NCBI GenBank assembly: GCA_039566865.1
Contig: CM076958.1
Coordinates: 7,416,501 to 7,480,500 of the forward strand
Length of the DNA: 64,000 bases
Direction of reading: 5' to 3'
Source: Aurelia coerulea
Taxonomy: Eukaryota; Cnidaria; Scyphozoa; Semaeostomeae; Ulmaridae
This document shows, piece by piece, positions 22,608 through 42,682 of this stretch (positions within the stretch are counted from its first letter, which is position 1; each line of letters begins with the position of its first letter). The position numbers and the translations under genes are program-made. The notes under the pieces were generated by a model. It saw only the letters and a list, made by a program, of their open reading frames with translations, did no database searches and was not told the DNA's origin.

Positions 22608-22987
22608 AGTTTAGCTATGATTATTGATTCTTGAAGTCTGGGTACTTTTCGTCTCTCTTGACGAAGTGCTTCTGATGTCAGAAGGGTTGAGCTTTCCAAA
22701 GTTAAATTTCCTTGAATTGGAACCTATGACAAATTCGTTTACGATGCTGACAAGGTTGAATTTATCCACTCTGTCGTTGTACACATGTTTCACCATCAGG
22801 TGGTTGAGGCGGTAGTTTGCTGTTGTTGAACTTAAATAGGTATTGACTCTCTTCAGTGCCAAGGGCCTGTCACTGATGATAAGTTTTCTATGTTATTATG
22901 AAGAATAAAAAATTCAACTTCTGGAAATTATTGGGGGGGGCCCGGGCCCGACCGGCCCCAATAGGTGCTACGGGCCTGAAGTATGGT

Positions 22988-23236
22988 ATTATATAAGTTT
23001 CATAATTTTAATTATATAAGTAAAATAAGTTTCAAAGTAGAGTTGTTTTTCAGATAAACTTTAATTCTTTTTTTTTGCGTTAATCATATATTTTATCAAT
23101 AATCATAAATAAAATTTACATTAAATAAAATTCAACTTAAATAAAACTTTTAAATTTCTTATATTTCTATTTCTGTGCGAGGCCCAGCGCTATCACTATC
23201 AAAATAAACGAGGCTAGCCTCATTCTCATTGCTAGA
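22988..23236 (+). repeat. left terminal inverted repeat of the putative alpha-kinase/integrase transposon
   Basis: From ATTATATAAGTTTC to GAGGCTAGCCTCATTCTCAT. It is almost identical to the reverse complement of 42199-42603 once a 152-bp MITE is removed from the latter. The outermost bases are ambiguous and no TSD was identified. The alpha-kinase ORF starts within 200 bp of its inner edge. Confidence 0.8.
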
Positions 23237-23410
23237 CGAAAAAGAGCGGGAAACAACGCTAAACAAGTTGCACGTTGTCCTGAAAAATATGTCTGACAAG
23301 AATAAGAGGAAGATTTGGAATGACTTTCGTAACCAAATTGCAAAAAAGAGAAGAGGAGACACAGCCCCAAGAAGAAAGGCCCATCACCACAAAATGTTAT
23401 GGTGCAGAGA

Positions 23411-23656
23411 ATGAGCGCCGAGCCGAACAAATTAAAGAAATATGAACCACTCGACACGTGTGATTTTGTCGACTTTACGAAATACGACGAGCTGTCGATT
23501 GAAAATGTAAAGGATGCCTGTGAGAAGTTTTATGAAATGCCTGCAGGATCATGTGATGTTCTTCTCAGTGACCGTGGCCCATCTTGTTATCTAACAGAGC
23601 AGATAGCAGGGAAGAAGTTTTACCTTGTAAGATTTTGTAAGATTTCTTCCAAATAA
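23411..23656 (+). pseudogene. N-terminal part of the alpha-kinase ORF, cut by an insertion
   Basis: The frame starts at ATG 23411 (or in-frame 23399) and reads YEPLDTCDFVDFTKYDEL, then SCDVLLSDRGPSC, then KKFYLVRF, with no recognised standard domain. A short basic ORF just upstream (23288-23414, KNKRKIWNDF) ends in TGA overlapping this ATG and may be the same protein after a 1-nt indel. At 23657 a TA-flanked 14.9-kb segment begins. Joining the two flanks across it continues an open frame (VRFLPNN, then IAIPVDTS) into the kinase part at 38584. A local 10-bp duplication GTAAGATTTT near 23628 breaks the frame. The function of this N-terminal region is unknown. Confidence 0.6.
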
Positions 23657-23831
23657 TACCGGGTGCGCCAAAATAAACTATACATTTTTGGCAGGCCACG
23701 ATAAATCGTACACTGGACCGATTTTAAAGATTTATGACTTAATCTTTAGCAGAAAGCCTGAATTAGATTCTAGGATTTTTACAAATTTTTTTTCCGTTTT
23801 CAGTTTTTAGAGCTACAAGCGAGTTTCTTAA

Positions 23832-24636
23832 AGTTAATTGACGGAGATAAATAGCCACCTCCAGGCCTGCATATGCAGGGAGCTGGGCAAGCTAAAAATA
23901 GATCTTGTTTCTTAGCCAATGAAAATTGAGAACTCTTGTGGTGATCACCACTTTCACGTGATCAGGTTTTCTCGAGAACAAACAAATTTAAAATGGCTAA
24001 CGGATTCAGAGTTGTGCTCTCCTGCAAGAAACAGAAAATAGTAGGCTTTAATTAGCTGTAATTTTAGCTATGGTTTTGTTTTCAGCCTACTTTGTAAATA
24101 AATTAATGATGATGATGATGATGAAGAAGCGAACTCAACGAGCTGGAAAGTTGTACACTTTGTTTTTGGGTACGGGGAAAAGGAAGAGGAGTTGTTCTTG
24201 TTGGAGGAGCACGACGATATCCAGTTGTTATTAGGCTTCGAGACTTCAGCTGAGACAACACTAAGAGAATGGATTTTGGAAACAGTCGAGTTAGGCGCCT
24301 AGGCCGATCGTTGCCAAAAGACGAAACGAAACTCCCCCGAAACTCAGTCCGTGCATGACAAAATTTGAAAAGCTGGAAGATGGATATGTTCACATGCTGG
24401 AAGATATTCGTATGCAAGAAAGTTCCACGAAAAGAGGGCAAGTGTGATTATAGAGGATGATATTATTTTGTTGTATTGTAGTTGTACGGCCTTGTGCGTT
24501 TTCCATCCAGGGGTTTCCCCTCTTCCTCAATTCAGTGGCGTGACGAAAGGCAATCGCTGATTGGTCAATTCATTTCAATTGAGTTGAATTGAAGTTATTT
24601 TTAGAAAGCCGTTGGCTTTAGCTCCGTCAACTAACT
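23832..24636. mobile_element. 805-bp TIR element at TTAA
   Basis: Ends AGTTAATTGACGGAG and CTCCGTCAACTAACT, flanked by TTAA at 23828-23831 and 24637-24640. The other arm of the large inverted repeat (near 38408-38416) keeps the empty site with a single TTAA. It contains a short (GAT)n near 24102-24122. No transposase was seen; piggyBac or Kolobok type is an inference. Confidence 0.85.
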
Positions 24637-25020
24637 TTAAAATTTTCGTTTTCGAAAACACTGAAAACCATCAAAAAACGTTGATCAAATTTTCGAAAGA
24701 ATCAACATGACTGGACAAAGAGAAAAAGTTTTCAGCGTGATTTGGAGATTTGGAAGTTGATTATTGTAAACTTCTGCACGAGCGTTATTTCAACGATTGG
24801 CCTGTTACGAAACTCGGTAGTAGTTACAATAAAGTACCGCCCCAAAAGCCGTCACAAAATCAAATATGTATCAAGACCCCATGCTTCCTGGCCCCATGAC
24901 GCTTCCTCGCCCGTCTTTTTAACCCCCTTGACACAGGAACACAACCTGCACCAAAGCATAAATTCAATGACATTACAAAAGAAAAGACTTTTCTTTTGTA
25001 TCCTTGAAAATATTATCACA

Positions 25021-25140
25021 CTAGGCTTGCCGGTCGGCGCCAGCGGCGCCGACCTGGCCCGCCGTCGTACCGAGTGATTGCTTGGGAAAGAATTTGTTGC
25101 TTCTTGACGTTGTTTTCTGTTATCACTTGTACTCCGTTAT
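25021..25140 (+). repeat. GC-rich hairpin repeat, copy 1
   Basis: CTAGGCTTGCC is followed by a palindrome GTCGGCGCC-agc-GGCGCCGAC, then CTGGCCCGCCGTCGTACCGA and GGGAAAGAAT. The same order recurs at 33839-33955. It is strikingly GC-rich in an AT-rich context. Confidence 0.75.
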
Positions 25141-25372
25141 CACATGTAATGCCACTTCTGTTATCACTTGTACTTGTACTCTTGTAGCCATATTTAGCGT
25201 AGACTGCTGTGTAGATAATATATTTTAGATACCCTGTAAATTGATTTCATTTCAACACTGATCATTATTTCTAACATTGTTTTTAATAGATTAATTAGAC
25301 ATTGACATATTGTAAATAGGTTTTTTCTTTCCTTTGTATTATATTATTATCATTGTATTGTATCGTTAGATG
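25141..25372 (+). other. probable LINE 3' UTR, left part
   Basis: AT-rich non-coding sequence that appears to continue at 29094-29175, after the 3.7-kb foldback element is removed, into GAAGGGCTACCCTCCC and an (AAATC)n tail typical of L2/CR1 LINE 3' ends. Confidence 0.55.
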
Positions 25373-28300
25373 CACAGTGATCCAGATTGTCAAAATTATG
25401 GAATAAATGCCAAAACACAAAACGTTGGAAATGCAAAACCTTTCAAACCTATCATAGAGAAGACACTTTGAGGTATTCAGAACAAAAATCCGTATAGAAA
25501 TCGGACCAACTACTGCAGAGAAATTGCACTTTTAAGTTGACAAAAATTGCCAGGCCATGTTTTTGTTTACATTTCCGGTGTATCACTTTTGAAATGGGCC
25601 TAAACCAACAATTTCAAATTTTCATTTCTCCAGTTGTATTCGTCCAATTCCAATAAACTTTTTTTTAAATTGACCCTCAATGTCTGCGCAATTATACAAC
25701 GTATCAGTTCTATGAATTTACATCAATTTATTTAATTTATTTGGCACATATTTGCCAAGGGGTATTTTTAGCAGTAGAACTACTCAAGACCCCTAAATTT
25801 CTTCTTTCCTGGTGCAAACAAAAAAAGTGAGGAAAAAAGAGTCTTAAAAACTCATTTCGCACTAAACTTCAGGTATCGATGAAGGTTTCTGCCAAAGGGT
25901 TCGTTCAGGTTCGTACAGGTAAAAATTTTATAGCTGATATAAAAAATCGAGTCATTTAGGCCCATGTATGCTATTTTCTGTCATTTTCCGTGATTAGAAT
26001 GTATCTCTTGTTTCTGGGTGGTTCCATGGCATAATTTTCGTTTTGATTGCAGAGCTGTAATAATTAGGGTTTAAATTCTAAATAAAAAGAGGAATTATGT
26101 CATTACTTAACAAGCATATTAGCATTTAAGTGGATCAAACATAGTCTAGCCGACAAGCATTTTATGTCTATGACTTGGGTCATATGACTTAAATTATGTC
26201 TATCAGTGACGGATCCAGGGTGGGTCCACTGGGTCCCTGGACCCACTTAAAGAAATCAAAGTTTGGCTATTAATAGAAAGTTCACCATCTTTTTGACAAT
26301 AGGTTATGCAGTCACAATCTTTTCTGAGTGAAATAGATTTTGAAAAATGAGATTGTAAATTATCTTCAAGCGGTAAACAAGCAGATCAAGTTCTTTTCGT
26401 ATCTTTTGGATTTGATCCAAGGGCTCTTGAGTCAATGGTCCGGTAATTCTGCTTGTCGGTGATTATTTCTAGCGATGATGTTCTGTGAATGGCACTAAAA
26501 GCGGATATCCAGTTACAATGGTTTCAAATATGATGTCAATCCTTCTTTGTTCAGTGCTCATGGACCCATAAAAGCTATTTATACCTACATTCGTTCTATT
26601 GCAACGTCAGAAAACTTCCAAATTTAGCCTACTGTGGACCCAGCCACTGCGACGGATTCCGCAGTGGCTGGGTCCAGTGCAGACTAAATTTAGCAATTTT
26701 CTGACGTTTCAATAGAGATGAGTGTAGCTATAAATATCTGTCTGGGTCCACTGAAATGGATAACGCTCTGATTGCATCATAAGAAGTTTCGCATATAGAG
26801 AAGGCGGAACAGGGTCATGAATATGACTACTGACTGTGGTAGGAACTGAGGAATATGGAGCAGAGAGAGAGAGCTGATGTGTCAGATTTAAATCAAGTGT
26901 TCACCTTTTTAACGGCATCCAAGGAGCTGACCTTCTATCCATCTATGTATGATCTATGTATGTTTATATGAGTTGATCGTGTTCGTGTATGAATGATAAC
27001 ACAAGTGTCATTTTAAGACTTTAATCAAGCTAGTAAAAAGTCATGCTGTACACTTTGATTTGACGTAGTATTTCAAAATGATATATTATTCCTCAAGCAT
27101 CGCAAGAAATTCTTTGATGATTTTGGAGACTTGAAATATTCATAATCATGACCAAAAAATATCACATAAACTCAAACTCTAATCAATGTCTATGACTAGG
27201 CTTAAGTCCAAACTCTACCATTCGATCTATTAACTATAGTTCATTTTTTCATGTTTGGAAAAAGCGCCTCTTCTTGGTTTGATGCAAAGAAAGTCTCATT
27301 CTCACATGCCTGAATTTGTCGCTTCAATGGATCGTGTCTAGCATGGGGAATATCTGGTGCAAATTTGATGAGCATCCGGACAAAGGGGCCATGATTTACT
27401 GACACAAAACTTTTTCACAGTCTGCAACCAAAAGTTCCTCTAAATTTTCAGATGTACTCGTTCCACAAAAACTCTAATTGGATTATAAACCAAGAGGTTT
27501 TCTTTGAAGTGACAGTTTTAGTCTTCTAAACTGCAGATAACTTTTAGAATATAGTTTCAGTCTGTGCGATTCTGTAATCAGTTTCAACCTTAACCAAAAA
27601 TAAATGTAAAGTTCCTTTGGATTTTTTAAATTCAGCATTAGGTATTGAATAAAGAAAGATAAAGTGATAAATATACAGCCTATGGAGTAACTATAAGTTC
27701 ATAAAATTCATGATAACTATATAGTTTTTATCATTGCCCACGACATGTAATGAACCAAAAAGCTAAGGCTCGTGAGACCTTTAATTTGAAGTCCAAGATG
27801 AAGTTCGTTTCTCAAGACTTATACAACAGAAGTGCACTTTAAAGACTAAAAGCCAAGGCGAGGGGGTTCTCAAATTTCTGGTCATATAGGCATTTAGGGC
27901 AGTTTTTGTCAGAAATTATAGAAACAGGGTATACTTTCATAATCTTGTTGTGAATTTTCTGGTACTGGGGCTTATCATTTACGAAACATTCTGAAACTGT
28001 TCTGTTTCCCGTGACTTTAATGTTAGGTAATTTAAAGTCCTGCTAATGCTTTGTTTACGTGAAACAAAAATATTGCAGTGGTTTTGCAGCGAAAATTTTT
28101 CTTTGTGAAAACGTAACTCGTATTCAAAGATTAGGTATCAAAATCTTCCCTAAATTCTGGGATTGGGTCATGACAGAAATCCTTTTGCCGCACACCACAC
28201 CTTCCTGTAACCTATTAGTGCAGTTTCCAAGATCAAAAAATGGACCTCAAGCCCAAGCTTTGTATCTTAACAGTCATAGACATAAGATGCTTTGTTGCCG

Positions 28301-29093
28301 TGATTTTAGTGTAAACCATGTTAAACCCGTGTACGATTCAAGTCATTTAAATGTTAATGTGATTGTTAGGTAATGAAATAATGCCTCTTTTTATTTAGAA
28401 TTTAAACCCTCGCTATTAAAGCTGTGCAATTAAAACGAAAACTATGCATTGGAAACACTCAGAACAAAAATATACATACTATCATTGAAAATCACAGAAA
28501 ATAGCATACATAGGCCTAAATGACTCGATTTTTTATATCAGCTATAAAATTTTTACATGTACGAACCTGAACGAACCCTTTGGCAGAAACCTTCATCGAT
28601 ACCTGAAGTTTAGTGCGAAATGAGTTTTTAAGACTCTTTTTTCCTCACTTTTTTTGTTTGCACCAGGAAAGAAGAAATTTAGGGGTCTTGAGTAGTTCTA
28701 CTGCTAAAAATACCCCTTGACAAATATGTGCCAAATAAATTAAATAAATTGATGTAAACTCATAGAACTGATACGTTGTATAATTGCGCAGACATTGAGG
28801 GTCAATTAAAAAAAAAATTTATTGAAATCGGACGAATACAACTGGAGAAATGAAAATTTGAAATTGTTGGTTTAGGCCCATTTCAAAAGTGATACACCGG
28901 AAATGTAAACAAAAACATGGCCTGGCAATTTTTGGCAACTTAAAATTGCAATTTCTCTGCAGTAGTTGGTCCGATTTCTGTACGGATTTTTGTTCTGAAT
29001 ACCTCAAAGTGTCCTCTCTATGATAGGTGTAAAAGTTTTTGCATTTGCAACTATTTGTGTTTTGGCATTTATTCCATGCTCTGGATCACTGTG
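25373..29093. mobile_element. 3.7-kb foldback element with about 720-bp inverted arms
   Basis: The left arm 25373-about 26115 and the right arm about 28365-29093 are reverse complements with minor changes. Ends read CACAGTGATCCAG and CTGGATCACTGTG. A 5-bp TSD AGATG lies at 25368-25372 and 29094-29098. The centre, about 2.2 kb, has no ORF of note but holds a separate hairpin at 26575-26750. No transposase is visible. Confidence 0.88.
26575..26750. repeat. hairpin inside the foldback element, arms about 85 bp
   Basis: GGACCCAGCCACTGCG and CGCAGTGGCTGGGTCC face each other across 8 bases near 26634-26675. The pairing continues outward through AACGTCAGAAAA and GCTATTTATA. It is probably a palindromic MITE. 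A nearby CAGTGACGGATCCAGG (26205) is hAT-like. Confidence 0.75.
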
Positions 29094-29175
29094 AGATGGA
29101 GGGCCCCTTGAAAATCAGCACTTGCTGAAGGGCTACCCTCCCTAAATATGTGAAATCAAATCAAATCAAAATCCA
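29094..29175 (+). other. LINE 3' terminus with an (AAATC)n tail
   Basis: CACTTGCTGAAGGGCTACCC, then CTCCCTAAATATGTG and three to four AAATC units. This is the right half of the LINE 3' UTR interrupted by the foldback element. Confidence 0.6.
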
Positions 29176-29194
29176 AGATGTCTCCCCACACACA

Positions 29195-29960
29195 TCGTGG
29201 TATCCCTCCACTCTCATCCGGGTGCCTCCCCACTGTACTGAATATCCCCCACCGTACTGACAATGCCTCTCCACACACATCATAGTATGCCCCCACTGTA
29301 CTGAACATCCCCCACTGTACTCAAGGTATGCCCCCACTGTACCCAGGATGCCTCCCCACTGTACTGAACACCCCCCACTGTATTGCACACCCCCCACTGT
29401 ATTGCACACACGTTCCGTGTGGTGATTCTATTCTAAATTCTACAAAGCTGCTGTTCATAGTTGCGCAAGGGAGCATTTCACAACATGAGTGTTTACCCCC
29501 AGGGCCATTGAGAGAGAGGCCGGGCACCACGCCCTTTTATCCTTGGGTACGCCCCCCTATGCACTGGTAAGACACTGCTTTTAGATTTTTTTTAGAATCT
29601 CAGTGGGCCTGCAGGCCTGAACACGTTCCTGAAAAGAAAACTGTAACAAAGAAAAATACATACCTTATTTCTTGCTGGCCTACAGAGGCCCCGGGCCCCC
29701 AGGTAACTACCCTGGCTACCCCTTCTCTGCTCTGAATATCCCCCTACTATACTGATGGTGCCTCACCACACACATCATGGTATCCCCCCCCCCCCACTGT
29801 ACTCCAGATGCCTCCCACTGTACTGAACACCCCGTCCCCCACTGCACTCAAGGTATCCCCCACTGAGCTCCAGATGCCTCCCCACTATACTGAATTTGCC
29901 CCCACTGTACTCAAACATACCTCCCCACTGTACTGAACATCCCCAACTGTACTGCACACT
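29195..29960. repeat. minisatellite CCCCACTGTACTGAACATCC, opposite orientation to 4712-5255
   Basis: Repeated CCCCACTGTACT units separated by GAACATCC, CAAGGTATGC or CCAGATGCCTC, with ACACACATC spacers. It is interrupted at about 29411-29720 by unrelated sequence. It is the reverse complement of the 4712-5255 motif, AGTACAGTGGGG. Confidence 0.85.
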
Positions 29961-31837
29961 CCCGGTGGGTGCAATTCAACAGTAAAAGGTACATCACGCT
30001 CGTCCGTACCATTCCATAGGATACCCTTTTCTCTGACATTCTAGTTGATGAAAAAACCCCTTCTCATGGCAAATTTTGAAGGTATCCCCCCTTTAAAGGA
30101 TTATCACTGAGCCCTAAAGAAATATGTACAGTACAAACACTGTTTCTAAGAGAAAGGTTTGGGATTTTGGCACTTCTACTGTTACGATTCACTTATACTG
30201 ATATCTCTTCTCTTTGTTGGAAAACAGTAGAATTCCATAAAACTTGGGGTATGACACTTGGGCCAGGTAAATTTTGACTTTTATTTTAGGGCCCCGAGTC
30301 CACCAGCCAGCATTTCACCGTTTTTGGGTTGGAATATTTTCTGAAGAAAAATACCCCGTTTTTCCTAAGATTCTACAAAAAACTTTCATAAAAAGGAATA
30401 TAGCTCTATAAATTCTCAATTTACTCTGTATGTTACGATTATTGTAGTAGATTTTTCCCGGTTTATGGGGTCATATTTTAAAATTTTGCCCTGGTTACGG
30501 GTCCTAACTCTGAATTCTCAAAGACACATATATACCAGACCCCCTATAGGAGTTACCCCCTCGCCCTTTGCTTTCTAGCCCTCTCATCCCAAACAGAGGC
30601 TCTGAAATCACTTTCTGATTGTTCTTTCCAGCAATTATTCTGGTTGGAAAGGTATTGACGTCAGAAATGTGTCTGGAATGGAAGGGCAATTAGCGGTGTT
30701 GCCTTCCAATGAAGAAAGTACAAATAGAATTGTAATGTAATGTTTAATGTGTTGTTGTTCAATTTCAATGACCTCTGAAAACAGAATAGCTTGTAAACAT
30801 TAGGCCTCTCAATTCAGATCACCCATCCTGTTCAACCGAGGATAGTTCGGAAGAGTGATAGCACCCCTCAACTCGTTTCACGTTTTTAATCGGGCAAAGG
30901 GCGACGTGCAAATCGCTGATTTCTTTGTAAAACTGCCTTGTAAAATAGCAGATAAGTCCTAGTCATTGCTCATAAAAGCATAAAAAGACAGCAGGTAAAA
31001 ATAAAACTTACGGAGACTCCTAAAATAAGACTGCGGGAAATCACAAGAGTCGACAGGAGTCTGAAAAACTTCCATAGCTAAACTTTATTTCGATTTGGCC
31101 CAAGACCTGGCCCCTGTCTTCTTTGAAGGATTTTCTTCAGCTTCAATTTCTGCACATGTGGTTTCTGTCAAAAACAGAATGCACGCATTCGTTGCCGATC
31201 CCTTACTTCCAGTTATCGTCCAATATTTCACACCATTTTACTCTTCCTTCCCTCTTCACATTTCATGAGGGCCTATTCTTTGATAAGAGACTTAGCCAAT
31301 CTAGGTTTAGTGGCCATTTGCTGCCAAAAGCTGGTCGAGAGTATCGTAAATGTTAATCCTCTCAAGGAACAATTCAAGTACTATTTTAATCTAAAAACTA
31401 TCAACAGTTTGAAAGCAATTTTCCATGCTGCACAACAATGTCAAAACCTTTTTGCGTGACAACTCAGATGGCAGTTGAAAACATAAAAGGGGATGTTTCT
31501 CTTGAGAGAAGGGGGAGTCTCCGAGAAAGGGCTAAAAAGGCATCTACAAATTAGAAAATGTTGCAATTGTGGCACCCTGGAGCGCCAACCCCTCTCCTAA
31601 TAACTCATCTTTTGAGGTAGAAACCCCTTAAATATAGCAAGGCTGCCAAAAGACAACATTTAGCAAATAAACTGGGGGAAATGGCCTTTGATGAAGGGTG
31701 GGAAATGTGCAATTTCCACTCGACCCCCCTCCAGCACCTAGGAAATCCCCGGACCTGAATCCCTCTCCAAATGGGTCCCAATGCATATCAAGCGAATAGA
31801 GATTCCATTGGGATTTTTAAAAAATCAGAAAACCCCT
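29961..31837. other. unassigned stretch
   Basis: No gene recognised. There are many C-runs and short ORFs without motifs. It could hold old, decayed repeats. Confidence 0.3.
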
Positions 31838-33529
31838 TTTCATTCATTTTCATTTTTCATTATTTTTACACGGTGGCCCCGTCAATCGAGAGGATTGCTT
31901 TACAGGGGGCCGTGCCAAACTTTACAATATTACTAAAAATTACTAACAAATTACCTATATTTACAATCTAAAATAAAAAATAAATGAAAAACAATGGAGT
32001 TAGCCTGAGAGAGGCAAATTACTTTTCAGCATACTTTTAAAAATGCTAAGAGAGGGTGCTTGTTTGACATCCAAAGGCAATTCATTCCAAGTCTTTGCAC
32101 CCCGGAAAGATATCGCTTTCTGCCCATTGCAAGTTTTCATCCTTGGAACAAGGACATCGGCAATGGCATTCCGCAAATTCATACTGATATCACGCGCAGA
32201 GTTTTTCTTGAAAAGGTTTGAAAGATAGCTGGGTGCAAGACCTGACAATGCTTTGTATGTAATAGTAGCTGTCTCGCATTTTATCATTTCCGTAACCGTT
32301 GGCCAATTTAGTTCCTTGATCAAATTTGAGGCGGATACATCATAGCTGCTATTGGTGACAATTCTTGCAGCTCGATTTTGCAATTTTTGTATGGTTTGCA
32401 ATCTGGTTTCACTGCAGCCTCCCCAAATAGAACAGCAATAACGGAAATGTGGCTCTACGATGCCATGATACATTTTGATTAAGGTATCCTTAGGTACGAA
32501 TTTTTTGGCATATTTCAAAACTCCTAGAGCACGAGACAGTTTGCTACATAATAATTTCGTGTTCCGATCCCAAACGAGGCTATCATCAAGTTGGACTCCT
32601 AAATATTTTACATTTTTAACGATGTCAATTTCAGTGCCATCAATAACAAATGATGGGGTCTCTACTTTATTGTCAGCAATCTTTTTTAGGTTTGGTCGAG
32701 AACCTACAACCATCGCCTGTGTCTTTACGACATTTAGTGACAGTTTGTTCCCTTGTAACCATTCCTTTAGCCGATCGAGATCACTATCCAGTGTGTCATT
32801 CAACTCGTTGATATTTTTCGCAGAATGTGAAATACTTGTGTCATCAGCATACATTGTCACATTGCATTTACGGAGAGACATAGGGAGATCGTTAATATAA
32901 ATTAGAAAAAGGAGTGGACCAAGACATGAACCCTGTGGCACTCCGCAATCAACCTTTTGTAAACTTGAGGATGTGCCATTGCCCTTGCAGAATTGACGTC
33001 GGTTTTGCAGATAGGACTTAAACCAAGAATGCTCATGACCATCTATGCCATATTTTTTTAGTTTCGCAAGTAAAATTTGATGATCAACGGTATCAAAAGC
33101 TTTTTTTAGGTCGATAAATACCATCGCAGTGTATTTCCCGTTATCCATATTTACATACCAATCGTCAGTGCTATTTAATAAACAAGTAACCACAGAGTGC
33201 AAAGACCTGAAGCCAGACTGGTGCGAGAAAAGGAGCTTGTTTCTATCCAAGTATTCGTAAACCTGGTTGTAAACCAGCTTTTCGAATACTCTAGACAAGA
33301 AAGGGAGCACCGATATTGGTCTGTAGTTAGAGCGATCATCTTTTTGCCCACTTTTGAATATAGGGGCAACTCTCGCAACCTTCCATGAATTGGGAAAGCT
33401 CCCAGTTGCTAGAGATAGATTGAAAATGTCGCAAAGGGACTCAGCTATGACCGGAAGACCAGCTTTCAGAAAGAAATTAGCAATACCATCAGTACCAAAT
33501 CCCTCAATGGGGAATTGAAGTACACCCAT
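31838..33529 (-). CDS. LINE reverse transcriptase ORF, 5'-truncated but open
   Basis: A 509-codon uninterrupted frame (32000-33529). It shows all main RT boxes in order: GTDGI, WKVARVAPIFKSG, YRPISVLPFLSRVFEKLVY, QSGFR, FIDLKKAFDTVDH, CGVPQGSCLGPLLFLIYIND and MYADDTS. Then come VKYLGVQLDDSL, EPHFRYCCSIWGG and QKLQNRAARIVT. The catalytic YADD is intact. The endonuclease and ORF1 are missing. The 3' UTR (31838-31999) ends in AAAATGA-type repeats, an L2/CR1-like tail. An open frame over the whole retained part suggests a fairly recent insertion. It would encode RT activity only if expressed from outside. Confidence 0.92.
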
Positions 33530-33955
33530 TTTTTGATGTCATGAGCAGCGCGAGAACAATCGAATGACAAAGGACTTCGAGCTCAACACAAAGGGGAACA
33601 AAGGGCTTGGCAAGCCGAAAGTGGGGTGAGGAATTTGGCGAATAACCCCTCGACCAGAGCCTTGACTGGAAAAAGAGGACGTTTTGAGGAGGAACGGAAT
33701 GTTGGGCGACGTTTTCACCTGCGGTTCGACTTCGCCCATGTTGCGGTTCTGCCAATCGAACTGTCTAGACAATGAGAAAGTTCGCGAGAGGGACAAAGGG
33801 AATGACGCCACATCCGACTGCAACGAATATGTATATAGACTAGGCTTGCCGCTTTTCGCCTGCGGCGCCGAGCTGGCCCGCCGTCGTACCGATTTAGCGT
33901 GGGAAAGAATGCGTTGACTATTGGCGTTATTTTCTCTCTATCACTTTCTGTGACC
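33530..33955 (+). repeat. dispersed repeat ending in the GC-rich hairpin, copy 2
   Basis: 33839-33955 repeats the order seen at 25021-25140: CTAGGCTTGCC, a GGCGCCGAG-rich segment, CTGGCCCGCCGTCGTACCGA, then GGGAAAGAAT and a TTATTTTCT tail. The minus-strand frame at 33539-33823 has no recognised domain. Confidence 0.6.
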
Positions 33956-34075
33956 AAAGTATTGGATGTTACTTGAATTAATTTAGTTTGTAAATTATAT
34001 TTTCCTCAATGTTTTAGCTTTCTGCATATTTGGAGACCCAAAAGAGTAAGCCAGAATTTCAGGAACTAAAAACTA

Positions 34076-34287
34076 CAATCATGGACATAAATTATGAGAC
34101 AAATTTACTTTTTCTGATATTTTGAACTGTTCAGCATCCTCTCCCTCCCCCCGTTCCCCCATAATCAATGTTGAAAAGTCCAAGAACCTCCCTCGACACG
34201 TCACCAACATTGAATAAGGAGGAGGGGGATCTTCAATAGTCAGATCTTAAATTTTGAATTTGTCTCAAACTATTTTGTCCATGATTG
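34076..34287. mobile_element. 212-bp TA-flanked MITE
   Basis: Ends CAATCATGGACA and TGTCCATGATTG, with TA at 34074-34075 and 34288-34289. The subterminal TGAGACAAATT is also inverted. The TA duplication suits Tc1/mariner (inference). Confidence 0.8.
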
Positions 34288-34844
34288 TAACTGCACTAAT
34301 CATAGAACCAAAAAATAACTATTGCCCAAATTTTTGACACAAAAAAATAACTTGAGAATCCCATCCCTATCCTAAATATACCAGAGTACCCCCCCCCCCC
34401 TGCCAGGACATTGGAGCCATTTAAATATCAATTCAATTCAAAGGAGTTAAACTTAGATGAATGTAATCAGTCTAGGCAAATGTAGCCCTCATAATAGAAT
34501 GATGTTATTACTTTAATGTTATAATTACCAAGGTAATAGCCCATAGAAATGTAATAGCAGGTGTTAGTAACGGCAGTTTGAGCTGGCATACTGGAAAAAC
34601 CGGACCCTATGATCCAGGGACCCCTCTGACCCCTATGATCTTCAAGTACTGAATTTTGAAAGGAACCTGAACATAGAAGGGTTATCCTCCCCTGCATAAA
34701 GGCTACATGCTAATCAATTTGGTGCCATTACTGTTGATTGCAGCCTGGGGGTGAATGCCTATCAAGCAGGGGCGGATCCAGACGCTGGCATTGTTCTTCT
34801 GCAAGCATGGTAACTTGCCGCTGATTGTGTAACTCGCACCTTAA

Positions 34845-34990
34845 AGGGTCTGTTTCATCCAGCATGCCTTGCACGTGCCATCTCTTGGTTGGCCTTTGTT
34901 GCCGTCATTTTCATGGCCCATGAAAATGGCGGACAACAAAGGAACATCAACAGACGGAACGTGCAAGGAATGCTGGATGAAACAGACCCT
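34845..34990. mobile_element. second copy of the palindromic TTAA MITE
   Basis: Ends AGGGTCTGTTTCATCC and GGATGAAACAGACCCT, with TTAA at 34841-34844 and 34991-34994. The left arm has more changes than the right when compared with 16774-16920, so this hairpin is less perfect. Confidence 0.9.
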
Positions 34991-35404
34991 TTAACCATAG
35001 TGACTATGCCTTCACTTAGCTGAATGAAAGAATCCGCTAAATCATTAACATCTTCATCCATCGTAACTTTCAGAGAAAGTCCCTGCCCTACCCTTGTTTG
35101 TTTTATTAGTGCACATTGCATCTTCCATACCAATTTAAACTGGGGTGGAACTCAAAAATGCTGAAAAGTTGAAAACACAAAATAGAATTTCATGGAAATG
35201 TAAAACAAAGAGCAATAATATTAATGCACCGTAAATATTCTTCAGTATGAGCACTGATAAAGGGTGGACATGCTTCCATTTCTGGGGGATCAAGCACACC
35301 TTGTCGACTATTTAAAGAATGACATGCATATGTTATTTGTACTGATGCTATGTCTGTCGAATTGTATTAACCCAGAATCTAAGAATCTAATAGAATCTAA
35401 ATTG

Positions 35405-35660
35405 GAAGAATCTTAGTAGAGTCTAAGTTGGAAGGAACACTTCAAATCCTTGAAAGGTAAAATAGCAAGTGGTTTGTCTGCATTGAAAAAACGTTCTTCC
35501 GCAATCTAAGCTATGTGAGGTTTACCATGCGCTGGTTGAAAGTCACCTCCGATATGGGAATGTTATCTGGGGTAGCCTAACTAAAACACGACTCCCAGGA
35601 AGATCAGATCTCAGCCTGGATCCAATCCTAGCTAATACCAAATTTTAAATTTTGTTTTTC

Positions 35661-35700
<40 letters not shown>

Positions 35701-35785
35701 TAACAAACTTGTAACTTTTGTAGTTTAATTTTGTACTGATGGGATTATCGTGTAAAAATATGAATTAATAAAAATTAAAAAAAAC
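35405..35785 (+). pseudogene. LINE 3' fragment with an internal deletion, sister of 2161-3017
   Basis: Matches the reverse complement of 2161-3017: GTCTAAGTTGGAAGGAACACTTC onward, through CATGCGCTGGTTGAAAGTCA to GGGGTAGCCT. It then jumps straight to the UTR (CTCCCAGGAAGATCAGATCT). About 390 bp of coding sequence is missing. A (TTTA)n expansion lies near 35660-35700. Confidence 0.85.
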
Positions 35786-35846
35786 CCCCTCCCCAGGCTG
35801 CAATAAGCAGTATTGGCACTAAATTTGAAAAATTATGGTAGAAGTA

Positions 35847-36233
35847 CACTCATTTTTTTTATAAGAAACTAAGGTCCGGGGCTGGTAGGCAGTTTCTTAA
35901 ATTTTTGGGCCATTTTTCTACCAAAAGTTTCTTAGGTGTTTCTTATATTTTTAATGCCAGTAGTGTAAAGTTAATCTTGTTTTGTTTAAAGGGCTCTCAA
36001 ATTAGTCACTAAGATCTCAAAACAATTAAATAACATAATTCGCACTCAAAATAATGTCCAAACAGTTGCAATAACTGTACAGTGTCAAAACATTTCTGAC
36101 TGCCATAGGAAAATCAAAACTGTAAGTTACAAAAGTTTCTTAGCTTTTTAATTCCAGGTAGGGTTGTTTCTTAACTTTCGAAAAATTGAGCCTACCGTTT
36201 CTTATAAGCGGTTTCTTATAAAAAAAATGAGTG
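35847..36233. mobile_element. 387-bp TA-flanked MITE
   Basis: Perfect 23-bp ends beginning CACTCATTTTTTTTATAAG, flanked by TA at 35845-35846 and 36234-36235. The interior (GGTAGGCAGTTTCT to CAAAACTGTAAGTTAC) recurs inverted at about 60850-61130, where the ends have decayed. Confidence 0.88.
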
Positions 36234-36235
36234 TA

Positions 36236-38060
36236 ACCTGATTAGCATTTAGCATCCTCATTATCATATGGCCTTTATGCAGAGGGGATGACCCCTCTTA
36301 AGTGTCCTTTCAAAACTCAGTACTTCCTAGGGTCCTATATGGGTCCTAGGGGTCATAAGGGTCTAAAGGTCATACGGTCTGGTTTTTGATTACAAAGTCC
36401 TTTGTAATCTAAGAAGGGGCTCCGATATCAGTCAGAAAGTCAGAAAGAAAGAAAGAATGAAAGAAAGAAAGTAAGTAAGTCAGTCACGCTCGTTAAAACA
36501 ATTAATTAACGTTTTATCTCTGCTAATTGGCACTGAAATAAAGAAAGCGCACAGAAAACGCATACAAGACAGATGTTTCCTGCGATCCTATAGCAACATT
36601 TGACGTCGGCTTATTTCATGTTGGACAGATTTGACACCGCAAGATGGATAAATCACCATGATGTTTACCCTGGCACAACAACAAATTGGCACGTTCTTGA
36701 CTTCATTAGCAGCTTAATCATGTTAAAACAATCGTTTTCTAGAACGAACGCATCATTAGCCACTTATTGATAGAACTCATTATGCAAATAAGTCAACCTT
36801 GGAGGATGATGTAACCGGCGGCCTGCACAGAGGCTTGCATTCGCAGTATCACCGAAGGTAGAAGGACCGGCCTCCTACACAGCTACGGATGCAAATGTAG
36901 CAGGTGAAGTTGAGAGGAAAGGTGCAGAATTCCAGCAAACAATGGCCCTATTGACTGGGGGAAGGCACGTGATCACACTGAACCAAAACATCTTCATGCA
37001 TGTGAATCTGCACAGAGGTTATTTTCGTGACTGCTTGTCTCAAACTAGATGCCCGCGAATAGAAACGTTCTGCAGGGTTCTGCATAAACATAAGTAATTT
37101 TGCATTATCGTAAATCTCACATGACATCTAATTTGAGGCATACAAGGCGCTTGATTTTCTATTGAAGGCGACTTTAGCAGCAACACTCATCTCTCTGACT
37201 GTAGCTAAAAACAGCATCAACGATCATTTGGGGTTATGAAGAAATCAATTTTCAGATTTTCTTATGCTTGCTTAGCTCAGGACGGACTTTGTAATCATCC
37301 AAAAGGATCTTATGTTTCCAGTATGCCGTCTCAGCAGAGCAAATCCCAAGGGCGGAAGTATCAAATTATCTTTGTGTATGAGCATTTTGTTATCATAGGA
37401 ATTGTTATGATTTCGAAGGGAATTCCAACGATACAAACATGTAAATGCCCAGTAGAAGCCGCTTGGCTTCTGTTTTCGAACTGAAATTTCAGAAGCATGT
37501 AGAGGAATGATACAGCTAAAGATTTTGTATTTATTTACGGATTTTAAGCAAATTTAAATGGTTGAAAACGCATAATGTAAACAGTTATGAGCACAGTTTC
37601 ATTCGTTGAAGAGCTTGACCAGCGTGCACGATCTCTTCTAGTTTCTCGAAAAATTCGCGAAAATGAATTCTGTTTCCACATGCCTGTAGGTTAATCATCT
37701 ATCTAGAATAATGTTCTCGTATCTAAAACGATAAATGTTCATGAACTAAAAAACCGAGTTCTCAGCAGAAGTATCACTGGTAAAAGCCGTTTGCGGACGA
37801 TGGGGTTTCCACAGGGTGAGAGATCTTATAGATTCTGTCCACAGGGTTTTGCCTGAAAATCCCCAAATCAGACTTATTCCGTTCCTGGCGGCCCAGCCTG
37901 GCGTTTTTTGGCGAAAAGAAGGCGATTCGTGGAACTTACATATTTTTGCGGATTTTTTGGCACCTAAATGCAAGGGCCAGTGGGACGGGAAGGGGGAGAT
38001 CTCAGTGACGTACAAAACGCGTATGGATCCTTTGATCTGACCGTCTCGACGCTTGGTTAT
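36236..38060. other. unassigned stretch
   Basis: No gene recognised. (GAAA)n and (GTAA)n purine tracts lie near 36440-36475. ORFs at 37236-37484 and 37816-38040 have no motif. Confidence 0.3.
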
Positions 38061-38064
38061 AGTA

Positions 38065-38170
38065 GACTAGGAATCAGAACCCGCGCTGCGCGCGGGTTCG
38101 GAGTTCCTAGCTCCTGCGGAGGGCTTGGGCGCCTCCGGCGGCCACTGTCGCGCTTCGCGCGCCATATTAT
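38065..38170. repeat. cluster of GC-rich palindromes
   Basis: GAACCCGCGC-tgc-GCGCGGGTTC, then CTCCGGCGG and CGCGCTTCGCGCG. It lies directly inside the right arm of the 14.9-kb segment and resembles in style, though not in sequence, the hairpin repeat at 25021. Confidence 0.6.
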
Positions 38171-38583
38171 CAGTACTTTCAGTGTTATTTTTGTCGTTGG
38201 TGTGGTTTCTTTATACTTGCTCTTGTTATCCTTAGTTATAGTAGATTTCTCCCAAGATAGTACGAACTCTCATACAGCAGCTTACAATTGGTCGATTTCT
38301 AAATCCCAAATCACCACGAAAAAGTTTTCTTTTTATCCATTCATATCGATTCTTTAGAAAGCTTGATCGACGTTTTTTGATCGTTTTTAGTGTTTTCGAA
38401 AACGAAACTTTTAAGAAACTCGCTTGTAGCTCTAAAAACTGAAAACAGAAAAATTTGCAAAACATTGTATAATCTAATTCAGGCTTTCTGCCAAATATTA
38501 AGTCATAAATCTTCAAAATCGGTCCTGTATACGATTTATCGTGGCCTGCCAAAAGTGCATAGTTTATTTTGGCGCACCCGGTA

Positions 38584-39581
38584 GGCCAAATAATATTGCC
38601 ATACCTGTTGATACTAGTAGGTAGTAGTAGAACACCAAGAGCTCATAGCTTTGGAAGAGATGTTTCATTAGACAGCAAAACAAGTTATCCAGTAAGCTGG
38701 GGACATAGTGCATCTACCTTGTCCCACTCTGGAAATGTGCCACAAAAATCAAGAATGAAGCCTGCAGAAAAGTTAAGCCATCTTCCACCAGTCCCTTCTT
38801 CAGCATTTCCAAAATCAGTATCATTAGCTGACCTTCTAGATGCAAGAAAACTGATTGAGCCACCCAGTGTCACACGTTTGAAACATGATCTTAGTGGTTA
38901 TGATGTTGCTGAAAAGATGTGGAAGCCATCAGGATCTATTGAGGTCAACAAGGAAGATTCACATTTTGCTGAGTGGGGATTCAGGCATGCATTCCTTGCC
39001 ACTTCAGTAAACCCAAGAGCCCAAGAAAAGTGGGTCATCAAAGTCACCAAAGAGGAACATCTAGCCCCAGTAACAGAAAATTTCAATATCACCGTCACGC
39101 AGCACACAAGAAAGCAAGTCCAGATGCATGCTGTTACAGGAGCATTACCAGGAGTTTCAATAAAAAGATACCCTCAGTCTTTGGTTCATTTTTTAGGTAC
39201 AAGAAGGTTTACTTTTCCACTATTGAAGGCAAACCCGTCACTGTTGAGGAATTTATACCTGGTAATTTCCAGAAGTATATAAACAACACTGGGCAGATTA
39301 GAGAAGCACAGTCAGCTGAAGATAGAATCCTTATAGAAAAGGCAGAATGTTTGGTACACTACTCATATTGGCACACAAAGAAGCAAATGATGGTTTTAGA
39401 CCTTCAGGGTGTGGAATATATCCTTTGTGACCCAGAGATTGCCACTGCTGTCCTTCAGGAGGATGGAGAATTAAATTTCTGTGCTGGAAATTTATCTTTC
39501 AAAGCAATAAGTACCACCTTTCTTGCAGGACATTCATGCAATGATTATTGCAGGGTGTTGGATTTGGCACAGGAACAATAG
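38584..39581 (+). pseudogene. alpha-kinase domain ORF (C-terminal part), one frameshift
   Basis: Atypical protein kinase of the eEF2K/TRPM7 (alpha-kinase) type. The first frame (to about 39140) reads SFGRDVSLDSK, FRHAFLATS and KWVIKVTKEEH with the ATP-binding lysine. A missing base near 39140 moves the match to the second frame: FGSFFRYKKVYF, VEEFIPGNFQKYINN, KAECLVHYSYW, MVLDLQGVEYILCDPEIAT (catalytic Asp and DLQG), FCAGNLSF, and GHSCNDYCRVLDL. The H-x-C-x3-C zinc site typical of the fold is present. It ends at a stop at 39579-39581. There are no introns over about 1 kb. With 23411-23656 it forms one ORF split by the 14.9-kb insertion. A lone 1-nt insertion near 38625 also breaks the frame. 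Kinase catalysis would need these repaired. Confidence 0.85.
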
Positions 39582-40611
39582 ATTGGAACATAAAAAGCTG
39601 TTACAAAATTACTGTTCATCAACCTTCTGAAAATCAAGACTTGCTAAACTGCAACATTAACCAACCATTTTACAACATGAAGAAATTAATCACTAATACA
39701 CAAATTTGCACATGGTTGAAAAGTTGAAGTTTAATATGATTTATAGAATAGCTCCATTTTCATGAATATTCAAGAACTTCCATTACTTTATGTTGTTAGA
39801 TATTGAGTCCAGTGGGTGACATATTGATAAAATTTGGGGGTAAGGCTGTTCTTCAGTAGAAATACATTAAAGATTGTTTTTTTAGAGAAATAGTTATTCC
39901 ATTCAAGAACATTGGGGAGTGACCAGTGGCAGAGCCAGACCAGTGGGGGGGGGGGGGTATAAAGGTATACCCAGACACTTTTATTGCATATTTAAATGAT
40001 CAATGAAAGCTTATTCATCATTTGGTAATGAAAGCTTATTCATCCACAACAAATTCAATATTTTCTACCATACATATATCATCATCATCAAAATGCTACA
40101 ATACAGTTGCACTAATAAAAGAATTATGCATGGCAGCAACAAACAAACAAATATTAAAACTAAACTAATTAACTAAATTAAAAGGAACAGGAAATACACT
40201 GTATGCATGACTTGAACATGTTAATTATTGCAGCTGAATAAAGATGGACAATATCATATTGTGGAACTTCATGCAGGACAATACCATTTCAGAAAGGGTA
40301 TCAAGACAATTTGTTACACCTAAAACCTCAAATGAAACATGCATAAAAGACCAACTGCACATCATCAAAACAGTCATATTATTTGCAGCTCTTTCATATA
40401 ATTTTGTCGTCAAAAACAGAGCTTTAGGACAGCCAAACAGAGTAATGATGGCACTAGGTACTGCAGACAAAATATCTATGACTAGATGAGTTTGCTGGTG
40501 TGTAATTGGTCTTTATTTTTTAAATTTGAAGATAACTTGCTATGAGCCCTAACTAAAACTAACAAATTCAGCAACAATAACAAAGTTCTGCAAAACTGAA
40601 AAGTTCCAATT
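39582..40611. other. intergenic region between the convergent kinase and integrase ORFs
   Basis: AT-rich and non-coding. It contains CAGTGGCAGAGCCAGACCAG followed by a G-run near 39923, resembling one end of a hAT-like element, without a matching second end. It probably includes the 3' UTRs of both flanking ORFs. Confidence 0.4.
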
Positions 40612-42143
40612 TCAGCTGCAAACAGAATTCTTCAGAAACCTATATGCTTCTACTAAGTCCTTGCATTCAACTCTTTCAGGATTGGGCATGAGAGTGACTA
40701 ATTCATTTCGTTCATCCATGCTTATATAATCCAATGGAGAGTCACCAACTCCAGCTAATTCCGCAACTTCAAGAATGTCATGTTTGGATACTTTGATTCC
40801 CATTTCCCTTCCACCATATTTCTCAGGAAAAGCATGCATATGATTGGGTACTCCTGACGGTAATTCAATACCAACTTGGTGCCTTATTCTGTGGGCATTC
40901 CATAATTTGGCAAAAACACCACATTCCCTTTGCAAAACTGGAATGAACAAATAGGACATAAGCTTCCTATCCCTCAAATTCTGAGGATCATAAGCTCTTG
41001 AATTTAGCAACAAAACTAGGTAGGCTTTGATATGTTTCTCCATTCTTTCATGCAGGTCCCTCCACCATCTTTCAATCTTGTTGGAGGTAGAGGGCCCAAA
41101 AATAACTGAATCAGAAGGTTCATTCAAATCCCCTTGTTTGCCATGCAAATAAACATGAATTGTGGCCATTGTGCCAGTTTCAGTACCTTTATCTAGCCTA
41201 AGGTAGTTTGGCATCATCTCAGTTTCAACCAAGCGCTGCATATAGAAGTTACCAACAATAACTGGATCAGAATCTCCTTTCCACACATGATGAAGGAATA
41301 TGATCTTACGTGAAAAGGTGTCAAGACAGCTATAAATAGCCAAGGGGAAAGTGGAGTTTTGGAACCCCATCATCTTGTCATGGCCATCAAGTGAAAAGAC
41401 CCAATTAGATCCATCAGAAACTAATGGCTGTTTTACGCTTCTTTGCTTTTTTCTTTAGATTTCTCTCATCCAACGCTTCCGGGTGGATATCCCATATTAC
41501 ATCATGAACCACTTGTCTGGGAACTCGAATGCCATGTTCTGTTCTCAGCTTCAAGTTCATGTTTCGATACCCCAACAGCTTGCCAGGGCCCTCCATTTCT
41601 TTCCTCACTACCTCAGCAACAGTTGGTATAGAAACAGTGTTGTCAATGTAGCGTATATTGAAGTATCGCAGGCGTCGGTCCAGTGTAGGAATGCTCCAAG
41701 GGTAACATGGGAAATCTCTTTTCATGTAGTCGAGTATTTCTCGTCTTTTCATGTTTTGACTGACATGACATATGTCAACAAAGTGTTTTCAAGCTCATGA
41801 TTATCAAACCATGATGTAGTCCAGGGTGCATTCCATGTAAAACCTACGCCGAAGGTACGCCGAGTCCTAACCTTTCGTACGCCAGGTATTTTCAGGGAGA
41901 GAAAATACACGTCATATATTTTTGATCATATCAAAGGAAACTGCTAATTCACACAAGACAAGATTGAGGACAACTTCACATTCACGCCAAGGTAGGCAGA
42001 TTTTCGTATGCCGTCACGCCAAGAACCAATTTTATTGAAAAATGACGCTGCTACGCCGACAAAAGGTGAGGTCTACGCCGAAGATCTTCGGGCCTAAGTG
42101 CATGGAATAGATCCTGGGATGTAGTAGCTGCACTTGAAGCCAT
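40612..42143 (-). pseudogene. DDE integrase/transposase ORF with two 1-nt frameshifts and a MITE insertion
   Basis: Start ATG at 42143-42141 (MASSAATTSW...), interrupted by a 297-bp MITE at 41821-42117. A 1-nt shift near 41752 leads into MKRREILDYMKRDFPCYPWS, an N-terminal DNA-binding-like region. An extra A near 41436 shifts the frame into the integrase core: SLDGHDKMMGFQNSTFP (first D), MPNYLRLDKGTETGTM (second D) and FGPSTSNKIERWWRDLHERM (E), 39 residues after the second D. It ends at 40612. The whole would be about 400 residues, close to the known eukaryotic IS3-like or rve-type integrase proteins of fish and cnidarians (recalled family, not searched). Start and terminal repeat are about 60 bp apart, as in a transposon's transposase gene. 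Confidence 0.82.
41821..42117. mobile_element. 297-bp MITE with an 8-bp TSD
   Basis: Ends CCAGGGTGCATTCCATG and CATGGAATAGATCCTGG. TSD GATGTAGT at 41813-41820 and 42118-42125. The interior is rich in TACGCCGA motifs. The 8-bp TSD fits hAT-type mobilisation. Removing it restores the integrase 5' frame. Confidence 0.85.
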
Positions 42144-42198
42144 CGCACAGCTTCGTGTGATCAAAGATAATCAATCAATCAATAACAATCAAGTGCAA

Positions 42199-42603
42199 TC
42201 ATGAGAATGAGGCTAGCCTCGTTTATTTTGATAATGATAGCGCTGGGCTAGACTGATTACAATTCGTCGTAAATTTCGCTCGTTTTTTATATTTTGATTT
42301 TAACCCTTTCGCTCAATCTTGAGAGAGCGATTCCATTCAATTCAATAAGTAATTCAACTCAATAGCGAGCAAAAACTAGGGACGAACTGTAATAAGTCTA
42401 GCACTGGGCCTCGTGCTAAATAGAAATATAAGAAATTTAAAAGTATTATTTAAGTTGAATTTTATTTAATGTAAATTTTATTCATGATTATTGATAAAAT
42501 ATATGATTAACGCAAAAAAAAAAGAATTAAAGTTTATCTGAAAAACAACTCTACTTTGAAACTTATTTTACTTATATAATTAAAATTATGAAACTTATAT
42601 AAT
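42199..42603 (-). repeat. right terminal inverted repeat of the putative alpha-kinase/integrase transposon
   Basis: Reverse complement of 22988-23236 with a 152-bp MITE plus 9-bp TSD inserted at 42249. The outer end is GAAACTTATATAAT at 42590-42603. The integrase ORF starts just inside the inner edge. Confidence 0.8.
42249..42400. mobile_element. 152-bp MITE with a 9-bp TSD
   Basis: Ends TAGACTGATTACAATTCGTC and GACGAACTGTAATAAGTCTA. TSD GCGCTGGGC at 42240-42248 against GCACTGGGC at 42401-42409 (one change). The matching terminal repeat at 23176-23196 shows the empty site. The TAGACT end is shared with the 14304-15085 element. Confidence 0.9.
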
Positions 42604-42682
42604 TTGATAGCTATGGGCTACCATACACAAGGACCCTCTAGTTACCAAGCGACAATGTACTGAGAAAATTTAAAAAGCAATA

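What the first reader, a model, noticed from the sequence alone, without database searches (positions are those of the whole stretch)
22988..42603. Putative two-gene DNA transposon carrying an alpha-kinase beside its integrase
Seen: near-identical inverted repeats of about 250 bp at 22988-23236 and 42199-42603. An alpha-kinase ORF starts just inside the left one (+). A DDE integrase ORF starts about 60 bp inside the right one (-). The two are convergent. Subtracting three nested insertions leaves about 4.2 kb. Known: alpha-kinases (eEF2K/TRPM7 fold) are regulatory host enzymes; IS3-like/rve-type integrases drive eukaryotic DNA transposons. Inference: the kinase is transposon cargo or an accessory factor, for instance phosphorylating the integrase or host chromatin or translation factors. 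I know of no description of such a pairing.
Basis: partly seen in the sequence, partly recalled or inferred. Interest (0 to 1): 0.92.

Follow-up and report, generated by a model that had tools for sequence, protein, structure and literature searches.

The report
Two-gene IS3EU transposon carrying a kinase
A jumping gene in this animal-like genome carries its own protein kinase beside its cut-and-paste enzyme, and many related copies do too; the pairing was already reported briefly for fungi, but what the kinase does is unknown.

Summary
Long inverted repeats bound an alpha-kinase gene (+) and a DDE integrase gene (-) that converge; both are broken in this copy. True ends are 22982 and 42625.

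Other copies show a mobile two-gene element: termini TATGGTGGCCCAT..ATGGGCCACCATA, TIRs up to 388 bp, exact 6-bp target duplications in 3 of 6 complete elements (not in the window copy). These are published marks of the IS3EU superfamily. Genome-wide, 56 of 92 alpha-kinase loci have a clade integrase converging within 12 kb, none divergent; about 0.5 are expected by chance. Of 71 clade integrase loci (35% identity or more) 55 have the kinase; of 52 more distant ones none has it convergent. Both proteins are under purifying selection between families, and catalytic kinase residues are kept. Their trees agree only partly and reject each other's topology.

The pairing is not new in principle: Kojima 2025 (PMC12730594) states that fungal TET+ IS3EU elements hold transposase and alpha-kinase in opposite orientation. 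Added here: a two-gene form without TET/JBP in an animal-like genome, its prevalence within the clade, and evidence that the kinase is a maintained transposon gene. Its substrate is unknown.

The parts
22982..23236 (+). left terminal inverted repeat; begins TATGGT but lacks about 16 bp present in other copies
42201..42625 (-). right terminal inverted repeat, ending ACCATA; holds an insert of about 150 bp (about 42249-42398)
23289..23658 (+). alpha-kinase gene, N-terminal part (conserved module before the kinase domain); frame broken in this copy
   Evidence: open homologue in the C11:18033970 copy
38584..39581 (+). alpha-kinase gene, C-terminal part with the PF02816 kinase domain; one frameshift near 39140
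23659..38581 (.). nested insertion splitting the kinase gene (ends CCGGGTGCGCC..GGCGCACCCGG, TA duplication), itself holding further repeats and a reverse-transcriptase-like ORF
40612..42143 (-). DDE integrase/transposase gene (PF24764 at about 40879-41406); frame broken near 41440 and split by an insert
41820..42117 (.). 298-bp insert in the integrase N-terminal codons, flanked by GATGTAG on both sides
39582..40611 (.). spacer between the two convergent stop codons, 1030 bp, 93-97% identical in same-family copies; longest open frame 95 codons
22976..22981 (.). left flank hexamer ctgaag (right flank 42626-42631 cacaag): no clean 6-bp duplication in this copy

Best explanation
It is a decayed copy of an IS3EU DNA transposon with two genes: a DDE integrase-type transposase and an alpha-kinase, read towards each other from opposite long TIRs. 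Shown: the pair is recurrent, convergent and carried as one unit between TIRs in several families, and both proteins are kept by purifying selection. Inferred: the kinase is a resident, maintained gene of this IS3EU clade, not recent cargo, and it acts in trans to raise the success of transposition by phosphorylating a protein. The transposase or its complex is the likeliest target (about 40%); a host factor that limits the element (silencing, translation or repair) is next (about 35%). Identity and architecture are about 95% sure; the mechanism step is weak.
For: Same-family copies at C9, C11 (two) and C22 hold kinase and integrase in the same order and orientation at 95-98% identity in the aligned pieces. 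Families A, B, C and D hold both genes convergent, kinase 45-57% and integrase 48-64% identical to the window family by aligned piece; E has the kinase at the edge of the fetched stretch, complete in the genome search (C22:9448260, 507-codon frame). Exact 6-bp duplications caggtc and gttaac (two B copies) and ctgtac (C), and TATGG..CCATA ends. Genome-wide 56 of 92 kinase loci have a convergent integrase within 12 kb, 0 a divergent one, 1 only a same-strand one, 35 none; random placement gives 0.53 (for the 123 loci of the first integrase search, where 54 were seen). pN 0.25-0.30 against pS 0.81-0.84 for the kinase; in shifted frames the ratio is about 1 or more. K248 and D368 are invariant in the 73-sequence alignment, Q370, D378, H354 and C413 kept in 90% or more. 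Ten kinase/integrase homologue pairs from other data share an exact contig length, down to 2842 and 5435 bp (nine, from 110 of 120 listed kinases and 114 of 120 listed integrases; the tenth).
Against: No clean target duplication in the window copy, the C9 copy or A_C8. 16 of 71 clade integrase loci show no kinase within 12 kb, so the kinase may be dispensable or these copies are truncated. 35 of 92 kinase loci have no detected integrase. The random control ignores clustering of transposons; the distant-integrase control does not. No biochemical evidence of any target.
Confidence: 0.6

Rival explanations
1. A host alpha-kinase gene was captured recently by one element, as passive cargo.
For: The window copy alone would allow it; transposons of this superfamily do capture genes (TET/JBP in fungi, PMC12730594).
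Against: Five other integrase families in the genome have the kinase in the same place and orientation; 55 of 71 clade loci are paired; kinases of families A, B and W are 55-62% identical and under purifying selection.
Confidence: 0.04
2. Chance neighbourhood: a host kinase gene lies between unrelated repeats.
For: The window copy has no clean target duplication and is riddled with inserts.
Against: About 0.5 kinase loci expected near an integrase by chance against 56 seen, convergent in each; exact 6-bp duplications around kinase-bearing elements.
Confidence: 0.01
3. The kinase works not on the transposition machinery but on host physiology, for example translation (eEF2-like target), stress or innate defence, making cells tolerate transposition.
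For: Nearest solved structures by sequence are the TRPM7, MHCKA, eEF2K and ALPK1 kinase domains (one unnamed 'Protein kinase, putative' is also among the 11); that their known targets are largely cytoplasmic is recalled.
Against: The conserved N-terminal module has no Pfam match and no PDB match before about residue 208 of the query, so nothing ties it to the substrate-binding parts of these host kinases.
Confidence: 0.35
4. The kinase is an independent selfish gene that moves between IS3EU lineages and merely rides on them.
Against: Convergent position in all 56 paired loci; self-comparison of the fetched elements shows long inverted repeats at the outer TIRs only, with short ones of about 40-50 bp in the spacer of B; distance matrices still correlate (29 of 9999).
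Confidence: 0.15

Closest known systems
TET+ IS3EU transposons of rust fungi and Tuber indicum (Kojima 2025, PMC12730594; passages, section 4.1)
   Same: transposase and alpha-kinase genes in opposite orientations; 6-bp TSDs; termini TAYGG..CCRTA; TIRs longer than 30 bp
   Different: those elements carry a third gene (TET/JBP dioxygenase) between the two; here a spacer of 1.0-1.6 kb without a long frame; host animal-like, not a fungus. Sequence kinship of the two kinases was not tested
IS3EU / GingerRoot superfamily in general (PMC10045372, passages)
   Same: TA..TA termini, usually 6-bp TSDs, DDE integrase-like transposase
Alpha-kinases TRPM7, MHCKA, eEF2K, ALPK1
   Same: kinase domain with catalytic Lys, Asp and zinc His/Cys positions (roles recalled)
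   Different: a separate conserved N-terminal module of about 110 residues and no other Pfam domain; GNLS..A where TRPM7 and MHCKA read GNLG or NLG
Abundant rva_4 integrase genes of the same genome
   Same: same Pfam family
   Different: far closer to the Pfam model (E 1e-59 to 1e-82) and mostly without kinase neighbours: 4 of 150 within 12 kb; three of those four kinases already have a convergent clade integrase, the fourth (C22:5643821) is on the same strand 8.3 kb away

Membership tests
IS3EU DNA transposons | TA..TA termini (fungal form TAYGG..CCRTA) | tested here: met
   TATGGTGGCCCAT..ATGGGCCACCATA (with small variants) in W, A, B, C families
IS3EU DNA transposons | 6-bp target site duplications | tested here: met
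   exact in B_C8, B_C11, C_C5; absent in the window copy, the C9 copy and A_C8: 3 of 6 complete elements
IS3EU DNA transposons | terminal inverted repeats longer than 30 bp | tested here: met
   332 bp at 99.4% (B_C8), 339 bp at 92% (B_C11), 388 bp at 99.7% (A_C8), about 280 bp at 89% (C); none found for D and E within the fetched stretch
IS3EU DNA transposons | DDE transposase grouping with IS3EU/GingerRoot in a tree | not testable with these tools
   Repbase sequences not held; only Pfam rva_4 integrase core and a DDE-like pattern D159/D223/E263 in the alignment (motif assignment recalled)
IS3EU with alpha-kinase | alpha-kinase gene opposite to transposase | tested here: met
TET+ IS3EU | TET/JBP dioxygenase gene between transposase and kinase | tested here: not met
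   longest open frame in the spacer 95 (W), 62 (A), 91 (B), 86 (C) and 152 (D) codons; the one of D has no Pfam match. No TET/JBP profile was run on the others, and an intron-rich gene could be missed
Alpha-kinase family PF02816 | profile match above curated cut-off over the whole domain | tested here: met
   positions 1-185 of 185, 110-116 bits against 21.3, in A, B and the C11 copy of the window family
Alpha-kinase family PF02816 | catalytic activity | not testable with these tools
   residues conserved; no assay

The most novel reading that the evidence does not exclude
The alpha-kinase is an ancestral core gene of IS3EU in animals and fungi and an obligate licensing factor for transposition: to my knowledge the first DNA transposon superfamily with its own protein kinase. 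Most alpha-kinase 'expansions' in cnidarian, tunicate and rust genomes, labelled TRPM6-like, eEF2K or myosin heavy chain kinase, would then be transposon genes.
Probability: 0.35. Interest if true: 0.72.

Novelty: new member of a known kind. Interest (0 to 1): 0.5.

Why it matters
A protein kinase kept as a standing second gene of a DNA transposon is unusual and gives a testable case of an element that may use phosphorylation to control its own movement or its host. It also warns annotators. In this genome 56 of 92 alpha-kinase loci sit in the transposon arrangement, and homologues in corals and sea squirts carry names such as TRPM6-like, eEF2K or myosin heavy chain kinase. PMC4469406 lists 79 and 39 alpha-kinase domains in two of ten columns of its table, 5 in one and 0 in the other seven, and calls the family highly expanded in rusts and absent in Microbotryomycetes (passages); IS3EU cargo is a likely cause there (inference, not tested).

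Tried and rejected
Rejected: chance neighbourhood and recent single capture. Expected full parallel phylogeny: not found; 14 pairs gave a distance correlation r 0.37 but AU tests reject a shared topology both ways. Nine of the 14 pairs rest on equal contig length only, and some sequences are partial, so this test is weak; I did not repeat it without the one very close pair (W and P0051/P0128), which may carry part of the correlation. Scans of viral contigs with the window's integrase and kinase pieces found no relative; single proteins find close relatives only, and the first 70 or so residues of the kinase query were out of the kinase frame. Genome contigs was not scanned. Reaching fungal kinases by an alignment of the most divergent homologues (49 hits) gave no fungal name among the few named hits, so kinship of animal and fungal IS3EU kinases stays untested. 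Pfam gave nothing for the kinase N-terminal module. Literature: searches; of these one paper names both IS3EU and alpha-kinase. Apart from PMC12730594, PMC10045372, PMC4469406 and PMC5295586 (passages or one section) I saw listings only; one search showed 40 of 44 papers.
Full report
OBSERVATION. The inverted repeats score 98-100% over three blocks. Pfam recognises the kinase domain (38973-39578 +, E 1.9e-25) and an integrase core (40612-41451 -, E 1.5e-17). Copies elsewhere show that the repeat runs further out: TATGGTGGCCCATCGCTATCAAATTATATAAG and so on. In the window the left end keeps TATGGT at 22982 but has lost about 16 bp; the right end is complete at 42625. The kinase gene starts at 23289 and is split by a nested insert at 23659-38581 with a TA duplication. 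The integrase start codon is at 42143 and the gene is cut by an insert at 41820-42117 with a 7-bp duplication. The ORF listing also shows kinase and integrase each broken by a frameshift. So the window copy cannot make either protein whole.

SAME FAMILY ELSEWHERE. The window is G000:C16:7416501-7480500 of a 574-Mb genome in 294 contigs; its left repeat has 15 matches, a lower bound, the window's own among them. In the stretches fetched, copies at C9:15226165-15257165, C11:18033970, C11:18166323 and C22:715612-719562 hold kinase and integrase in the same order and orientation at 95-98% nucleotide identity in the aligned pieces. Others are partial. The C1 copy keeps only a repeat and the integrase start. 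The C22:4025283, C22:4034207 and C22:10417427 copies have integrase but no kinase within 12 kb. C22:699728 and C22:10408494 have integrase and a truncated kinase. The two C11 copies have an open kinase frame of 476 codons; C22:4025970 and C22:700415 have an open integrase frame of 415 codons. In the first of these the putative second catalytic Asp reads Glu (motif assignment recalled), so an open frame need not mean an active enzyme.

OTHER FAMILIES. The integrase query found 143 matches (139 of 447 candidates scored). I extended six loci of five further families and read them. Family A (C8:25983710), B (C11:16317641 and C8:17185617), C (C5:15457863) and D (C19:8634509) have the kinase convergent beyond the integrase. 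E (C22:9456033) has the kinase at the edge of the fetched stretch and a retrotransposon in its integrase; the genome search shows that kinase complete (C22:9448260). No TIR was found for D and E in the fetched stretches. A and B_C8 are near-perfect elements: A 4880 bp with 388-bp TIRs at 99.7%; B_C8 4864 bp with 332-bp TIRs at 99.4% (its kinase has one stop). Five B copies share over 99% identity over 3 kb, so B moved recently. Ends are TATGG..CCATA. Exact 6-bp duplications: caggtc (B_C8), gttaac (B_C11), ctgtac (C_C5); none for A_C8, the C9 copy or the window copy. That is 3 of 6 complete elements.

GENOME-WIDE PAIRING. The Pfam alpha-kinase model gives 100 matches, 92 loci. With the integrase places, 54 of 92 kinase loci have a convergent integrase as nearest match within 12 kb, 2 a same-strand one, 36 none. 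Adding nine places from a second integrase query (102 of 553 candidates scored), 56 of 92 have a convergent integrase within 12 kb (1.05-10.1 kb, median 2.8 kb), none a divergent one, 1 only a same-strand one and 35 none. Randomly placed loci give 0.53 on average, at most 4 in 2000 trials; that control ignores clustering of transposons. Seen from the integrase side, 55 of 71 loci at 35% identity or more are paired and 16 are not; of 52 loci under 35% none is paired convergently and one has a same-strand kinase. The 35% line is mine. Of 150 loci closest to the Pfam rva_4 model (150 of 521 candidates scored), 4 have a kinase within 12 kb; three of these kinases already have a clade integrase, the fourth is on the same strand. 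The kinase is therefore tied to one integrase clade.

THE PROTEINS. Kinases of A, B and the window family align over their whole length (B and W 62 and 55% identical to A), and integrases likewise (57 and 63% to W). The kinase domain is complete (Pfam positions 1-185). In 73 homologues K248 and D368 are invariant columns, and Q370, D378, H354 and C413 are kept in at least 90%. In the alignment to TRPM7 (1ia9, E 4.3e-17) D368, Q370 and D378 fall on the DLQG and DP motifs, and the end on the H-C-C zinc positions (roles recalled). Before the kinase domain lies a conserved module of about 110 residues (KKYEPLDTRDFV..GSCDxLxSDRGPSC..EQIxGKKxYxIRF) with no Pfam or PDB match. Between families synonymous sites are saturated (pS 0.81-0.85), while pN is 0.25-0.30 for the kinase and 0.22-0.27 for the integrase; third codon positions differ 2.3 to 3.4 times as often as second ones; in shifted frames dN/dS is 1.0 to 2.1. 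Both genes are under purifying selection.

OTHER GENOMES. Kinase homologues with names come from Paramuricea, Stylophora, Desmophyllum, Actinostola, Clytia, Ciona and Phallusia, several labelled TRPM6-like, eEF2K or myosin heavy chain kinase (156 hits, 120 listed). Integrase homologues come from Dendronephthya, Exaiptasia, Acropora, Actinostola, Clytia, Ciona and Patella (376 hits, 120 listed). No genomic context is given, but nine kinase/integrase pairs share the exact length of their longest contig, including 2842, 5435, 11852, 64267 and 85488 bp (110 and 114 proteins with a contig length); a tenth (188872 bp, P0276 and P0223) appears. Near misses of 1-20 bases above 2500 bp number four, all under 3 kb, so exact equality is mostly not chance. 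The Ciona pair is on one 12-Mb sequence and is weaker.

CO-EVOLUTION. With five families of this genome and the nine contig-length pairs, kinase and integrase distances correlate (r 0.37, 29 of 9999 permutations reach it). Maximum-likelihood trees agree on W with its relative and on A with B, but each data set rejects the other's topology (AU p 5e-4 and 5e-31). So the genes have probably been exchanged between lineages at times, unless some contig-length pairs join two different elements.

COMPARISON WITH THE KNOWN. IS3EU has TA..TA ends and usually 6-bp duplications (PMC10045372, passages); fungal TET+ members end TAYGG..CCRTA with TIRs over 30 bp (PMC12730594, passages). These are met here; grouping of the transposase with IS3EU in a tree could not be tested. 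PMC12730594 section 4.1 says that all TET+ IS3EU families have the TET/JBP gene between transposase and alpha-kinase genes, which are in opposite orientations.

HOW IT LIKELY WORKS. Shown: TIR-bounded unit with target duplications, pairing, orientation, conservation. Inferred: convergent transcription from each TIR yields transposase and kinase; the transposase cuts at TATGG/CCATA and inserts with a 6-bp stagger; the active kinase phosphorylates either the transposase complex (about 40%) or a host factor (about 35%). The remaining weight is for a kinase that merely rides along or has another role. Nothing here tells the target.

Noticed in passing
own genome G000, e.g. C17:4913785-4915493 and C21:11193200-11194908; C9:1150843-1151592 and others: In some families of the clade the integrase match falls into separate blocks or stops near residue 254 with the kinase about 3 kb away, as if the transposase gene has introns.
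   Followed up: no
own genome, PF24764 search: A different rva_4 integrase family is very abundant (150 matches from 150 scored of 521 candidates), many with frames of 300-680 codons and several with identical scores.
   Followed up: partly
G000:C22:4025283 and 4034207; C22:10408494 and 10417427: Two places on C22 hold pairs of same-strand copies about 8.9 kb apart, mirrored between positions 4.03 and 10.4 Mb, suggesting an inverted segmental duplication or assembly artefact; C11:18.03 and 18.17 Mb look duplicated too.
   Followed up: no
window 25398-29077: Inverted repeat of about 735 bp per arm (597 nt at 96% plus 138 nt at 83%) inside the nested insert, possibly another DNA transposon.
   Followed up: no
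window 32000-33538 (-): 512-codon open frame with reverse-transcriptase motifs (YADD), LINE type by eye only.
   Followed up: no
C22:4025970 copy (L013:857-2101): Open integrase frame with Glu at the putative second catalytic Asp, where the window copy and families A and B have Asp.
   Followed up: no
rust fungi, PMC4469406 table passage: Alpha-kinase domain counts of 79 and 39 in two columns, 5 in one and 0 in seven others may reflect IS3EU cargo rather than host signalling genes (inference).
   Followed up: no
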